64,000 nt of DNA from the NCBI GenBank assembly GCA_029238935.1, contig JAQZBN010000018.1:58357-122356 (forward strand), read 5' to 3'. Positions within the stretch are counted from its first letter, which is position 1; each line of letters begins with the position of its first letter. This DNA comes from Herbinix sp. (GTDB lineage Bacteria > Bacillota > Clostridia > Lachnospirales > Lachnospiraceae). Below are positions 32,826-54,580 of the stretch, piece after piece. The translations under genes and the position numbers were made by a program. The notes beneath the pieces were generated by a model. It did not search any database. It had not been told where the DNA came from and saw only the letters and a list, made by a program, of their open reading frames with translations.

Positions 32826-33815
32826 TTATAAACTATTCTTTTTTGTCCAATTTACCAACTCATCCACCGTCGTAAATGCAAGACCGGTAACAGTATCAGC
32901 ACATCCATAATAGATTGCGATCCGACCAGTAGCCGCATCCGTAAGAGCAGCACAAGGGAAGGTTACATTCGGTACATCCCCGGTTAATTCATAACTTTCC
33001 TGTGGTGATAATATATAAAACTTCGAGCGATATTTTACCTTCCAAGGTTCATCGGCATCCAAAATAGCAGCTCCCATACGATATACAAATCCATTACAAG
33101 TATTTAATACACCATGATAGATTAACAACCAACCCTCGTCTGTTTCAATCGGGCATGGTCCCGGACCAATCTTAGTTGCCTGCCAAGCAGAAGCATCCCC
33201 ACGGTATGCACCCATAACAAATCGATGATGACCCCAATATTCCAAATCAGAACTTTGACTATAGAAAATGTCACCAAACGGTGTATGGCCAGTATCGCTA
33301 GGACGACTTAACATTGCATACTTACCATTGATTTTTTTTGGGAACAATACTCCATTTCTATTATATGGAAGAAATGCATTTTCTAATTGAACAAACGTTT
33401 TGAAATCAAAGGTATAGGCAAGGCCTATGGTTGGTCCGTGGTAGCCATTACACCAGGTAATATAGTAACGATCTTCAATGAAACATACTCTTGGATCATA
33501 ACGGTATTCTCTTTTTAGTATCTCCTTGTCTTCCCCTTCAAAACTAATTGCTTCATGATTGATCTCCCAGTGAATGCCATCCTTACTAAAGCCTGCAAAA
33601 ATATCCATGCTTACTCCAAGGCTGTCACAGCGAAAAACACCGGCATAACCATCTTGAAAAGGTACGACAGCACTATTGAATATACTGTTTGATGTTGGTA
33701 TTCCATCTCTGTGAATAATAGGATTCCCATCATAACGCCATACCGGCATGCGATATCCTTCCGGTTTCTCCTGCCAAGGGATGTCTGGCAATGCATTTCC
33801 TATAATTTTACTCAT
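32826..33815 (-). CDS. Glycoside phosphorylase, GH130 (beta-mannoside type)
   Basis: GH130 enzymes use phosphate to release alpha-mannose-1-phosphate from beta-mannosides. The 329-residue protein shows the family's five-bladed propeller pattern: WRYDGNPIIHRDG, SIFNSAVVPFQDGYAGVFRC, YDPRVCFIEDRYYITWCNGY, and IGPGPCPIETDEGWLLIYHG. Asp108 in EYRYDPRVC is the likely proton donor (family knowledge). It has no signal peptide. Length and motifs suit the manno-oligosaccharide phosphorylase subgroup (GH130_2), although the exact linkage cannot be read. It is the last gene of the large operon, 32 bp after the second MalG-like permease, and its substrate should be what that operon imports. Confidence 0.92.
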   Translation of the reverse strand: MSKIIGNALPDIPWQEKPEGYRMPVWRYDGNPIIHRDGIPTSNSIFNSAVVPFQDGYAGVFRCDSLGVSMDIFAGFSKDGIHWEINHEAISFEGEDKEILKREYRYDPRVCFIEDRYYITWCNGYHGPTIGLAYTFDFKTFVQLENAFLPYNRNGVLFPKKINGKYAMLSRPSDTGHTPFGDIFYSQSSDLEYWGHHRFVMGAYRGDASAWQATKIGPGPCPIETDEGWLLIYHGVLNTCNGFVYRMGAAILDADEPWKVKYRSKFYILSPQESYELTGDVPNVTFPCAALTDAATGRIAIYYGCADTVTGLAFTTVDELVNWTKKNSL

Positions 33816-33847
33816 TTTCGTAATATCCTCCTAATAATTAATCTGTC

Positions 33848-34867
33848 TTAATCTCCGCCAAGACCACTTCGTTCTACACCCTGTACGAACCTCTTCTGTA
33901 CAAATAAATACAGGATAAGCAATGGCAAAATAACTAATATTGCACAGGCAGAGGCTACTGCCGTCTGCACAACAGGTGATTCTGCCTGGACAATATATCT
34001 TGAAGGAATTAATTTCTCCACATCAAGAATTGCCCACCGCATATTGTTCTGGATACGCACCAAACGCAGCGGCAAATGTAAATCGGTTGGGCTTAGCAAA
34101 GAAATAAAGTAAACATCGGAATAATTCCATACAAAGCTCAGTACACCTACGGTTGTTAAAGAAGCAGAAACTCCTGGAATAACAATTTGAAAAAAAGTCT
34201 TTAGGAAGCCTGCACCGTCTACGTAAGCAGCCTCTTCAATTGAAACAGGCAATTGCCTGTAGCTTTGTCTTAAAATATAAATATACAATCCGCCTTTTAC
34301 ACCCATTCCTGTTGCGGCCAGAATATAGATAGCCACGGTTGATCCAACAAGATTGATTGGTTGACCTGTTATCAACTTGATAATACCTAAGAAATCAAAG
34401 TTTCGGAAGGAAATATATTGAGCCAGCATGATGGACTGAGAAGGAACAATAATCGTAAAAATTACCAGCCCAAACAATAAATTACTACCTTTAAATCGTA
34501 ACCTGGCAAAGGAGTAAGCCGCCAGAGAAGCACATAGGGTCTGAAGTAAGGCCAGGACTGCTGTATTTCCTAAGCTAAATAGAATCCCTTTATTAAACTT
34601 TAAAATATGGCCTGCGGTAACAAAAGATTGCGCTGAGATTGCCGGCGGTACCCATACTGAGTTTTTCAGTCCCAATGCAGATTGGTCCGTAACCGCATCC
34701 TTCAGGGTATGAAGGATTGGAATTAAAATAACAAATCCCAAGCAAATGAGCAAAGTATAACGGAACAAAACTGCAACGATCTGAAGGCTTTTTTTGCGCA
34801 GTACCAGCGGATTATATCTGCCATTCAATGTTACTTTATCTTGTTTACTTTTTCGATTATTTGTCAT
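33848..34867 (-). CDS. Carbohydrate ABC transporter permease, MalG type (second pair)
   Basis: The 339-residue membrane protein has six predicted helices and the EAA loop EEAAYVDGAGFLKTFFQIVI that docks the shared ATPase. It belongs to the MalG/binding-protein-dependent permease family. I place the start at the ATG at 34867, preceded by AAGGAGGG; an in-frame ATG eight codons upstream lies before that site. The start overlaps the end of the MalF-like gene by 11 bases. An N-terminal positively charged segment of about 35 residues precedes the first helix. No MalK-type ATPase gene is in the operon. Confidence 0.9.
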   Translation of the reverse strand: MTNNRKSKQDKVTLNGRYNPLVLRKKSLQIVAVLFRYTLLICLGFVILIPILHTLKDAVTDQSALGLKNSVWVPPAISAQSFVTAGHILKFNKGILFSLGNTAVLALLQTLCASLAAYSFARLRFKGSNLLFGLVIFTIIVPSQSIMLAQYISFRNFDFLGIIKLITGQPINLVGSTVAIYILAATGMGVKGGLYIYILRQSYRQLPVSIEEAAYVDGAGFLKTFFQIVIPGVSASLTTVGVLSFVWNYSDVYFISLLSPTDLHLPLRLVRIQNNMRWAILDVEKLIPSRYIVQAESPVVQTAVASACAILVILPLLILYLFVQKRFVQGVERSGLGGD

Positions 34868-53457: not shown

Positions 53458-53512
53458 GATTATCCAAACCTTTCGCTTCGTTATAACAGCAAGCATAGAT
53501 CATAACCGTTTC

Positions 53513-54580
53513 TTAATTAACAATTATGCTTTCTCCTTCTACTACCCCATCGATGATCTCAATATAGTCCCCGGCAATCAATCCGGTTGTTACCTGTTTA
53601 TACTCTGGTATCTTTTCTTCATTGAGATAATAGACTACCGATTTTCCATCAATCGACGTAACCGCTTCAGCCGGAAGATATAGTACGTCTTCCCTTTGGT
53701 CAACCACAATAGTAACTGTTCCTTTATCCTTTTGATTAAGTTCAGCAAGCGGATCCTGTACTTCGAAATACACTGATTGATCAGATGCTTTCATCTCTAA
53801 CTCAGAGGGATCGACCACTGCAACATTGTACTCAGATTGATCTACAGATACAATAAACTCCATACCAGGTTCAAAGAAATCTCTTCGGTCGGTCTTTGCT
53901 TCAAACAACGCTTTACTGTTGTCAATGATAGTTACTACCTTATTTTGTAAAGCAGATTTACTACCTGCCGTAATTTTAGCAACATAGGAAACGGTACCGC
54001 CAAAGGATGCATAAATACTTCTACGTTCTACCTCTTCCTTCCAAAGAGTTATCTGGCTGTTCAATAGTTCTAAGCGAGTTTGAGACATCCGAACCTGATC
54101 TTCATAGTCTGTCTCCACTGCTTCGACGGACATTTGTGTATTACGCTGTATTTCGCTTAGTCCCTGTAATATCACCGTCTGACGTTCCACTGCCAGTTCT
54201 TTCTGCTCTCGCAAATGTTTTATATGTAGATTTAGCGTACTTACTTCTGCTTCAGCTTTTCGAATATTTTGTTCCAAGTCACTGATATATAACTGAGCAA
54301 GCAACTGGCCAGCAAAAACCGTATCCCCTTGATTTACATAAATACCTGCAAAATCTTCTCCTTCATAATCAAAAAAGAAATCTTCTTTTGCAACAGGCAT
54401 GTAGGCACATACGATCTTTTCTGTCTGCAATAAATCACCTCTGGTTACCCAAGCAAATTGATAATCCGGTTGATTCATAGAGACCATAACTGCAGTATCA
54501 TATTCCTGCTCCGGAACCAGTAGGCTACAACCGCTAAGCAGACAGGCGGCTATCACTGATATACCAATTATTATTCTCAT
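53513..54580 (-). CDS. HlyD/MacA-like lipoprotein adaptor (first of three)
   Basis: The 355-residue product has a lipoprotein signal (MRIIIGISVIAACLLSGCSL). Two lipoyl half-motifs (AGIYVNQGDTVFAGQLLAQL and YASFGGTVSYVAKITAGSKS) frame a coiled coil (about 105-185), and the C-terminus has the barrel segment VLYLPAEAVTSIDGKSVVYY. This is the first gene of the operon. A minus-strand promoter TTGACA/TAATCT lies about 110 bp upstream and TTAACATT elements flank it. Adaptors normally bridge an inner-membrane pump and an outer-membrane channel; in a monoderm they can only reach into the cell wall. Confidence 0.9.
   Translation of the reverse strand: MRIIIGISVIAACLLSGCSLLVPEQEYDTAVMVSMNQPDYQFAWVTRGDLLQTEKIVCAYMPVAKEDFFFDYEGEDFAGIYVNQGDTVFAGQLLAQLYISDLEQNIRKAEAEVSTLNLHIKHLREQKELAVERQTVILQGLSEIQRNTQMSVEAVETDYEDQVRMSQTRLELLNSQITLWKEEVERRSIYASFGGTVSYVAKITAGSKSALQNKVVTIIDNSKALFEAKTDRRDFFEPGMEFIVSVDQSEYNVAVVDPSELEMKASDQSVYFEVQDPLAELNQKDKGTVTIVVDQREDVLYLPAEAVTSIDGKSVVYYLNEEKIPEYKQVTTGLIAGDYIEIIDGVVEGESIIVN

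What the first reader, a model, noticed from the sequence alone, without database searches (positions are those of the whole stretch)
32826..54580. A 22-kb operon joins two sugar importers to a MacAB-like complex and unusual envelope proteins
Fifteen genes on one strand, with small gaps or overlaps, run from one promoter to one strong terminator. They encode three lipoprotein adaptors, an FtsX permease, two ATPases, two binding proteins, two MalFG pairs, an NHL/Yip1 protein, a DUF5696 protein and a GH130 phosphorylase. The mix of importer, exporter-like complex and surface proteins is not a standard glycan utilisation locus. I infer an envelope machine that senses, handles or moves a beta-linked glycan across the cell wall. 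The MacAB-like part may assist glycan processing or secrete a capture factor.
Basis: partly seen in the sequence, partly recalled or inferred. Interest (0 to 1): 0.85.

Follow-up and report, generated by a model that had tools for sequence, protein, structure and literature searches.

The report
Double glycan importer with MacAB-like partner
This bacterium carries nine copies of a seven-gene set with the parts of two sugar importers, and in this copy the set lies in one row of genes with an exporter-like complex that occurs in the same genomes, in the sampled relatives, far more often than chance would give; together they likely capture and take up mannose-containing glycans, though what the exporter-like part does is still only inferred.

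Summary
The 15 genes are real, on one strand, with gaps of -56 to 122 bases. They form two modules. (1) A conserved core: a 984-aa binding protein, MalF1-MalG1, NHL/YIP1, DUF5696, MalF2-MalG2. This genome holds nine copies, each beside different carbohydrate enzymes; 47 of 49 assessable loci in relatives and 58 of 63 in public genomes keep it. One MalK-type ATPase was detected in the genome. DUF5696 folds like GH129 glycosidases but seems to lack the acid/base residue; I predict a glycan receptor. (2) A block of three lipoprotein adaptors, a duplicated FtsX permease and two ATPases. It also stands alone, yet it co-occurs with DUF5696 (35 of 47 versus 46 of 350 genomes; odds ratio 19) and shares a locus with the core in seven of those 47 genomes, in both orders and in two clades of its tree. 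Enzymes here and in related loci suggest an N-glycan-like or other beta-mannoside substrate. No paper on DUF5696 was found in the held library.

The parts
54581..54902 (-). Upstream region with promoter-like TTGACA-17-TAATCT (at 54715) and five ATGTTAA/TTAACAT motifs
53513..54580 (-). MFP1, lipoprotein adaptor (RND/HlyD-like)
   Evidence: NCBIfam RND_mfp 3e-21, below cut-off; lipobox-like LLSGC in the sequence
52402..53496 (-). MFP2, lipoprotein adaptor
51324..52457 (-). MFP3, lipoprotein adaptor
48455..51307 (-). Duplicated FtsX permease, 950 aa, about 10 hydrophobic segments
   Evidence: PF02687 two stretches
47763..48443 (-). ATP1, MacB/LolD-size ABC ATPase
   Evidence: PF00005 4e-32
46892..47776 (-). 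ATP2, second ABC ATPase
   Evidence: PF00005 2e-32
45338..46831 (-). Small binding protein (497 aa, lipobox-like LTGC)
   Evidence: no Pfam match above cut-off; conserved place before the long binding protein in related loci
45304..45331 (-). Hairpin between the two binding-protein genes, no T tract on the coding strand
42261..45215 (-). Long binding protein (984 aa): N-terminal region in which relatives show CBM35-like/Golvesin_C-like modules, then SBP domain
   Evidence: PF13416/PF01547; precomputed Pfam of relatives; PDB Lin1841 2e-13
41320..42243 (-). MalF1 permease with EAA-type loop
40397..41290 (-). MalG1 permease with EAA-type loop
38299..40383 (-). NHL propeller + helical repeat + YIP1-like membrane part
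   Evidence: NHL; Yip1 in split homologue; model pLDDT 85.6
35786..38284 (-). DUF5696 lipoprotein with GH129 fold
34857..35771 (-). MalF2 permease with EAA-type loop
33848..34891 (-). MalG2 permease with EAA-type loop
32826..33815 (-). GH130 phosphorylase, closest to UHGB_MP, no hydrophobic segment
32760..32816 (-). Terminator-like hairpin with T-rich tail
30794..32560 (-). GH35 beta-galactosidase-like enzyme behind the terminator; next to GH130 in L095 and L170

Best explanation
The locus encodes the parts of two ABC sugar importers (two MalFG pairs, two binding-protein genes, an NHL/YIP1 membrane protein and a GH129-fold lipoprotein, DUF5696) in one gene row with a three-adaptor MacAB-like ABC complex, and together they likely capture and take up one kind of mannose-containing glycan. 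Shown by sequence and comparison: the seven-gene core is a conserved unit, present nine times in this genome; the block is a separate module that keeps company with the core. Inferred: (1) the long binding protein, the small binding protein and DUF5696 capture a large, branched oligosaccharide outside, DUF5696 acting as a receptor that has lost GH129 catalysis; (2) both MalFG pairs are driven by the single MalK-type ATPase encoded elsewhere; (3) GH130 and GH35 cut the imported glycan in the cytosol, most likely an N-glycan core or another beta-mannoside; (4) the FtsX-type complex is not an importer but uses ATP to do work outside the membrane through its adaptors, for example releasing or re-setting the loaded receptor lipoproteins. 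Step 4 is the weakest.
For: Core in 9 of 9 own loci, 8 in unbroken order; 47 of 49 assessable relatives' loci and 58 of 63 assessable public loci. Diverse CAZymes beside each own copy. One MalK-type ATPase in the genome; EAA-type loops in all four permeases. DUF5696: GH129 fold, acid/base column G or N in 45 of 60. Block and DUF5696 co-occur: odds ratio 19.3, still 14.4 and 38.6 within GH43-positive and GH43-negative genomes, while GH43 itself gives 3.0 with the block. Shared loci in seven of 47 genomes, three more among relatives, both orders, two tree clades. Substrate: GH130 525 bits to UHGB_MP, described as a Man-beta1,4-GlcNAc phosphorylase in PMC4599007 (passages); GH18, GH20, GH29, GH3 and NagB-type neighbours in related loci.
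Against: Eight of nine own cores lack the block; 46 of 81 sampled DUF5696 genomes lack it and 12 of 47 block genomes lack DUF5696, so neither needs the other. Genes after the block in other loci are mostly unrelated. Nothing shows that the four permeases form one transporter. The GH129 catalytic positions are partly recalled and the alignment there is uncertain; an almost always acidic column (D in 54 and E in 59 of 60 at 692 and 729) leaves other catalysis open. The N-glycan neighbours are not in the window operon itself. Association across related genomes was not corrected for phylogeny beyond a genus-level count.
Confidence: 0.5

Rival explanations
1. The MacAB-like block is a free-standing exporter or envelope-stress pump that was captured into this operon; it shares the promoter but not the task of the importer.
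For: It stands alone in most fetched loci: the core follows it in 2 of 34 loci with enough sequence, neighbours are mostly housekeeping genes, and 8 of 9 own cores lack it.
Against: Co-occurrence with DUF5696 at odds ratio 19.3, 31 of 40 versus 40 of 294 by genus; repeated joining in two orders and two clades; some other block loci carry GH43/CBM, GH94 plus an importer, or GH43/GH120.
Confidence: 0.35
2. DUF5696 is an active cell-surface glycosidase of a GH129-related family that trims the glycan before uptake.
For: Whole-length GH129 fold; weak profile similarity 2e-10 and 3e-6; a mostly acidic column next to the nucleophile place (D in 40 of 60) and near-invariant acids at 692 and 729.
Against: The column facing the putative acid/base is G or N in 45 of 60; the gene is locked to permease genes beside many different enzymes, which fits a shared transport role better.
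Confidence: 0.3
3. The core is two ordinary importers with different substrates that are merely co-expressed.
For: The two halves are swapped in L136, L142 and L145, and L135 has only the first half in the fetched stretch; two binding proteins are present; each pair has its own EAA loops.
Against: The two halves stay together in 58 of 63 assessable public loci and in all nine own copies, over several phyla and with changing enzymes.
Confidence: 0.35
4. The substrate is plant beta-1,4-mannan oligosaccharides rather than N-glycans.
For: GH130 also matches the R. albus beta-1,4-mannooligosaccharide phosphorylase at 494 bits; R. intestinalis uses GH130_2 on mannan (passages of PMC6385246).
Against: No mannanase among the neighbours scanned in the window and related loci; GH18, GH20, GH29 and NagB-type genes instead in related loci.
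Confidence: 0.3

Closest known systems
CUT1 carbohydrate ABC importers powered by a shared MsmK/MsmX-type ATPase (e.g. Athe_0595-0598 of Anaerocellum bescii; passages of PMC12838199)
   Same: MalFG-type permeases, sugar-type binding proteins (two there as well), no importer ATPase in the locus
   Different: Here two permease pairs, an NHL/YIP1 protein and DUF5696 form one conserved unit
GH129 glycosidases (NagBb 5wzn, ZgGH129 5opq)
   Different: DUF5696 is tied to importer genes, is a membrane-anchored protein, and the acid/base column is not conserved
MacAB and other FtsX-type ABC complexes with HlyD-like adaptors (comparison from general knowledge)
   Same: FtsX permease, MacB-type ATPases, adaptor lipoproteins
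   Different: One duplicated permease, two separate ATPases, three different adaptors (the last two in one double-length gene in 19 of 40 loci), and a partnership with importers
SusCD-type glycan uptake loci of Bacteroidota (general knowledge)
   Same: Many copies per genome, each a fixed uptake core beside different glycan enzymes
   Different: ABC importers instead of a TonB-dependent channel; no relation claimed
GH130 Man-beta1,4-GlcNAc phosphorylase UhgbMP
   Same: Full-length match to the GH130 of the window (525 bits)
   Different: Activity here untested

Membership tests
CUT1 carbohydrate ABC importer | MalF/MalG-type permeases with EAA loops | tested here: met
   PF00528 in four proteins; EAA-type loops in all four
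CUT1 carbohydrate ABC importer | Sugar-type extracellular binding protein | tested here: met
   984-aa protein: PF13416/PF01547, PDB sugar-binding proteins. The 497-aa protein has no such match
CUT1 carbohydrate ABC importer | MalK-type ATPase | tested here: inconclusive
   One OB_MalK match in the genome, on another contig; that it serves this locus is inferred
GH129 | GH129 fold | tested here: met
   Foldseek and VIA-align top matches are GH129; profile 1.8e-10 (where chance-like matches to a designed protein reach 1e-5)
GH129 | Catalytic nucleophile and acid/base conserved | tested here: inconclusive
   Profile alignment: acid/base column G28 N17 of 60, nucleophile column mostly R with D in 40 of 60 next to it; catalytic positions partly recalled, so this is not a clean failure
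GH129 | Glycosidase activity | not testable with these tools
   needs an assay
MacAB tripartite pump | MacA-type adaptor | tested here: inconclusive
   MacA and RND_mfp models match below cut-off
MacAB tripartite pump | MacB: ATPase and FtsX permease in one chain (definition from general knowledge) | tested here: not met
   Separate permease and two separate ATPases
MacAB tripartite pump | TolC-type outer-membrane channel | not tested
   no search made; a monoderm host is inferred from its relatives
GH130 mannoside phosphorylase close to UhgbMP | Full-length match to the characterised enzyme | tested here: met
   residues 12-328 aligned, 525 bits

The most novel reading that the evidence does not exclude
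The DUF5696 double importer and the three-adaptor MacAB-like complex form one ATP-driven envelope machine: a catalytically dead GH129-fold receptor, an NHL/YIP1 scaffold and two MalFG pores take in large host glycans whole, while the FtsX complex transmits mechanical work to the receptors so that bulky glycans are handed over; a Gram-positive counterpart of SusCD-type systems, deployed in many copies for different glycans.
Probability: 0.22. Interest if true: 0.85.

Novelty: new variant of a known kind. Interest (0 to 1): 0.62.

Why it matters
A seven-gene importer unit for which I found no paper (DUF5696: no hit in the held library) occurs in Bacillota, in Acholeplasma and in a spirochaete, and can be present nine times in one genome, each time beside other carbohydrate enzymes. 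If the reading holds, it is a general glycan-uptake unit that annotation breaks into unrelated 'permease', 'YIP1' and 'DUF5696' genes; it would give a glycosidase fold a transport role; and it would make the function of free-standing MacAB-like blocks in these bacteria testable through their partner.

Tried and rejected
Rejected: 'the block is almost never with the core'. My first count (2 of 40 fetched block loci) saw only about 5 kb upstream of the permease, and the relatives' loci ended about 600 bases after the DUF5696 match, so a block behind the core could not be seen in either set (nor in most loci). Searches then found the order core - binding protein - block in further genomes, and in three relatives. 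The numbers of joined loci are therefore lower bounds. G101 and G416 have both on one contig and strand but about 19 kb apart with unrelated genes between; not counted. In G010 a gene on the other strand lies between, so this is one locus, not one operon; in G171 two same-strand genes and an opposite-strand ORF lie between.

Considered: that the block's ATPases drive MalFG; judged unlikely, as a MalK-type ATPase exists elsewhere; not tested. Considered: that the hairpin 45304-45331 ends the transcript; on the coding strand it has no T tract. Similar stable hairpins lie between the same genes in L170, L097, L096 and L100, not in L095 and L098. Considered: that the block generally travels with glycan genes; 55 neighbours in other loci gave mostly unrelated families with a few GH43, GH120 and permease matches, though single loci carry GH43/CBM35, GH94 plus importer, GH43/GH120 or an amylase-like gene.

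Literature: DUF5696 in no held paper; YIP1, NHL and ABC transporter combinations gave nothing on this system (of the 38 papers I saw 15 listings); MacB/FtsX/HlyD/Lachnospiraceae gave two unrelated papers; GH130 with N-glycan, ABC transporter, Firmicutes and GH18 none. The library lacks most subscription papers and all preprints. I read passages only of PMC12838199, PMC4599007 and PMC6385246.

Limits: alignment A1 holds the window protein and 59 of the 60 reduced-redundancy relatives (L149 left out). The relatives' loci are 60 of the 73 non-own match rows; some of the rows left out are full-length. The sets were copied by hand (their sizes 47, 81 and 220 agree with the tallies) and include the window's own genome; without it the block row is 34 of 46. 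The chance estimate for linkage (about 1e-7) rests on an assumed genome size, copy number and distance, and G098 and G413 are of one genus. That the family is Lachnospiraceae is inferred from its named relatives.
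Full report
Observation. Domain searches support the named parts, with weak points: the adaptors match RND/HlyD adaptor models only below the NCBIfam cut-offs, the small binding protein has no Pfam match above cut-off, and Yip1 is detected only in the split-off homologue that I scanned. A promoter-like site at 54715 and a terminator-like hairpin at 32816 frame the row. A GH35 gene follows behind the terminator; in L095 and L170 it follows GH130 directly.

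The importer core. A DUF5696 search finds nine copies in this genome. All nine loci hold the long binding protein, MalF1, MalG1, NHL/YIP1, DUF5696, MalF2 and MalG2; eight in unbroken order, the ninth with MalG1 moved downstream (for the window copy MalG2 is read from the window itself). Of 61 genomes (own included) 33 have DUF5696. I fetched 60 of the 73 non-own match rows; 49 have at least 6.8 kb upstream, and 47 of those 49 show the long binding protein, MalF1, MalG1 and NHL there; MalF2 follows in 59 of 60. A scan of public genomes with the long binding protein returned its best 80 loci, so these are chosen by that gene; 58 of the 63 with enough downstream sequence have the full order. Of the five others, L148 and L161 look like slips of my ORF picker (one search lists the genes), L136 has the two halves swapped, and L135 and L143 show only the first half in the stretch held. 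Hosts include Lachnospiraceae, Bacillaceae, Paenibacillus, Caldicoprobacter, Halanaerobiales, a spirochaete and Acholeplasma. Acholeplasma has no cell wall (general knowledge), so the core is not a cell-wall machine as such.

Each own copy sits near different carbohydrate enzymes: GH3 (two), GH76, GH2 with GH43, GH76, GH130, GH38, GH95 with GH16, a Melibiase_C protein, and GH35 (I scanned 20 chosen neighbours of the eight other loci). The genome search finds one MalK-type ATPase, on another contig, so the nine double importers most likely share it, as MsmK is thought to serve the A. bescii locus (passages of PMC12838199). All four permeases of the window keep the EAA-type loop. A ~500-aa binding-protein-like gene often accompanies the core, before it (the window) or after MalG2 (for example L019, SBP_bac_1 at 1.8e-8); a + strand gene of 420-560 aa lies directly before the long binding protein in 39 of 78 public loci counted.

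The MacAB-like block. Homologues of the 950-aa permease occur in 47 of 397 genomes drawn from the family. Of 40 fetched loci, 35 show both ATPases; 19 have one single and one double-length adaptor gene, 16 have three single ones, 5 are otherwise, which suggests one complex with three different adaptor domains. The block is often alone: the core follows it in 2 of 34 loci with enough sequence, and neighbours elsewhere are mostly unrelated. Yet 35 of the 47 block genomes have DUF5696 against 46 of 350 without the block (odds ratio 19.3, p 6e-18). GH43, taken as a control for a glycan-degrading life style, gives an odds ratio of 3.0 with the block, and the DUF5696 association persists among genomes with GH43 (29 of 36 versus 41 of 184) and without (6 of 11 versus 5 of 166). 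By genus it is 31 of 40 versus 40 of 294. No further correction for phylogeny was made.

Shared loci. In seven of the 47 genomes block and core lie in one locus on one strand: block then core in the window's genome, G341 and G173; core, then a ~500-aa protein (an SBP in the one scanned, L213), then the block in G413, G333 and G098; and with further genes between in G171. Among 37 closer relatives, 7 have the block, all 7 have DUF5696, and 3 have both on one strand of one contig: G016 with only two genes between, G033 with GH43-like and other genes between, and G010 with a larger enzyme locus and one opposite-strand gene between (the GH43 label there is from the look of the sequence, not a scan). 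The public locus L095 has block then core, and L096 shows both ATPases followed by the two binding proteins on a short contig. In the permease tree (42 sequences) the joined loci fall in two separate supported groups, window/L189/L095 with L188 (contig ends) and L213/L214/L216/L219 with L207 (not joined), so joining arose or was kept more than once (G171, G016, G033 and G010 are not in the tree). On the other side, the own genome has one such permease and nine cores.

Substrate. The GH130 is closest to UHGB_MP (525 bits) and the R. albus beta-1,4-mannooligosaccharide phosphorylase (494 bits). PMC4599007 calls UhgbMP a Man-beta1,4-GlcNAc phosphorylase (passages). Related loci (long binding protein 45-60% identical) carry GH29, GH18, a transglutaminase (L097), GH20 (L098, L170, L189), GH3 (L098, L101, L170), GH4, a glucosamine-6-phosphate isomerase-type gene, an APH-type kinase (L100) and BT_1020-like/BNR propeller proteins (L100, L101). 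Around the window operon are GH35, a transglutaminase and a CBM9 protein. The set fits N-glycans better than plant mannan, but GH130_2 also serves mannan in R. intestinalis (passages of PMC6385246), so this stays a prediction. GH130 and GH35 have no hydrophobic segment, so oligosaccharides are probably imported before they are cut.

Verdict. The row joins two separable modules, and the comparison, against my first count, supports a functional tie between them. The mechanism of that tie is inferred.

Noticed in passing
54581-54902: Five ATGTTAA/TTAACAT motifs in the 322 bases before the operon, of 22 in the whole window; possibly a regulator's sites. No chance expectation was computed.
   Followed up: partly
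27735-30620: AgrB-like protein, sensor kinase and LytTR-type regulator in a row: an agr-like quorum-sensing locus by the look of the sequences; not scanned.
   Followed up: no
56090-58205: CBM9 protein and LacI regulator on the other strand; proteins with a similar start lie on the opposite strand near the core in L097, L098, L101, L103 and L170. A candidate local regulator.
   Followed up: partly
54903-55649: CutC-family gene directly upstream of the operon, same strand.
   Followed up: no
59578-62130: Transglutaminase-like protein; a transglutaminase-like protein also lies in the related locus L097.
   Followed up: no
L242-L245 (G101 and G416): Core and block on one contig and strand about 19 kb apart, with a GH130-like gene and apparently unrelated genes between.
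   Followed up: partly
L231, L232, L233: Proteins with weak GH129 model matches that keep acidic motifs where GH129/GH101 enzymes have theirs; possible active relatives of DUF5696 in the same family of bacteria.
   Followed up: no
L022-L023: One of the nine own cores lacks MalG1 at its usual place and has a MalG1-like gene after MalG2; L069 of a relative also lacks it there.
   Followed up: partly
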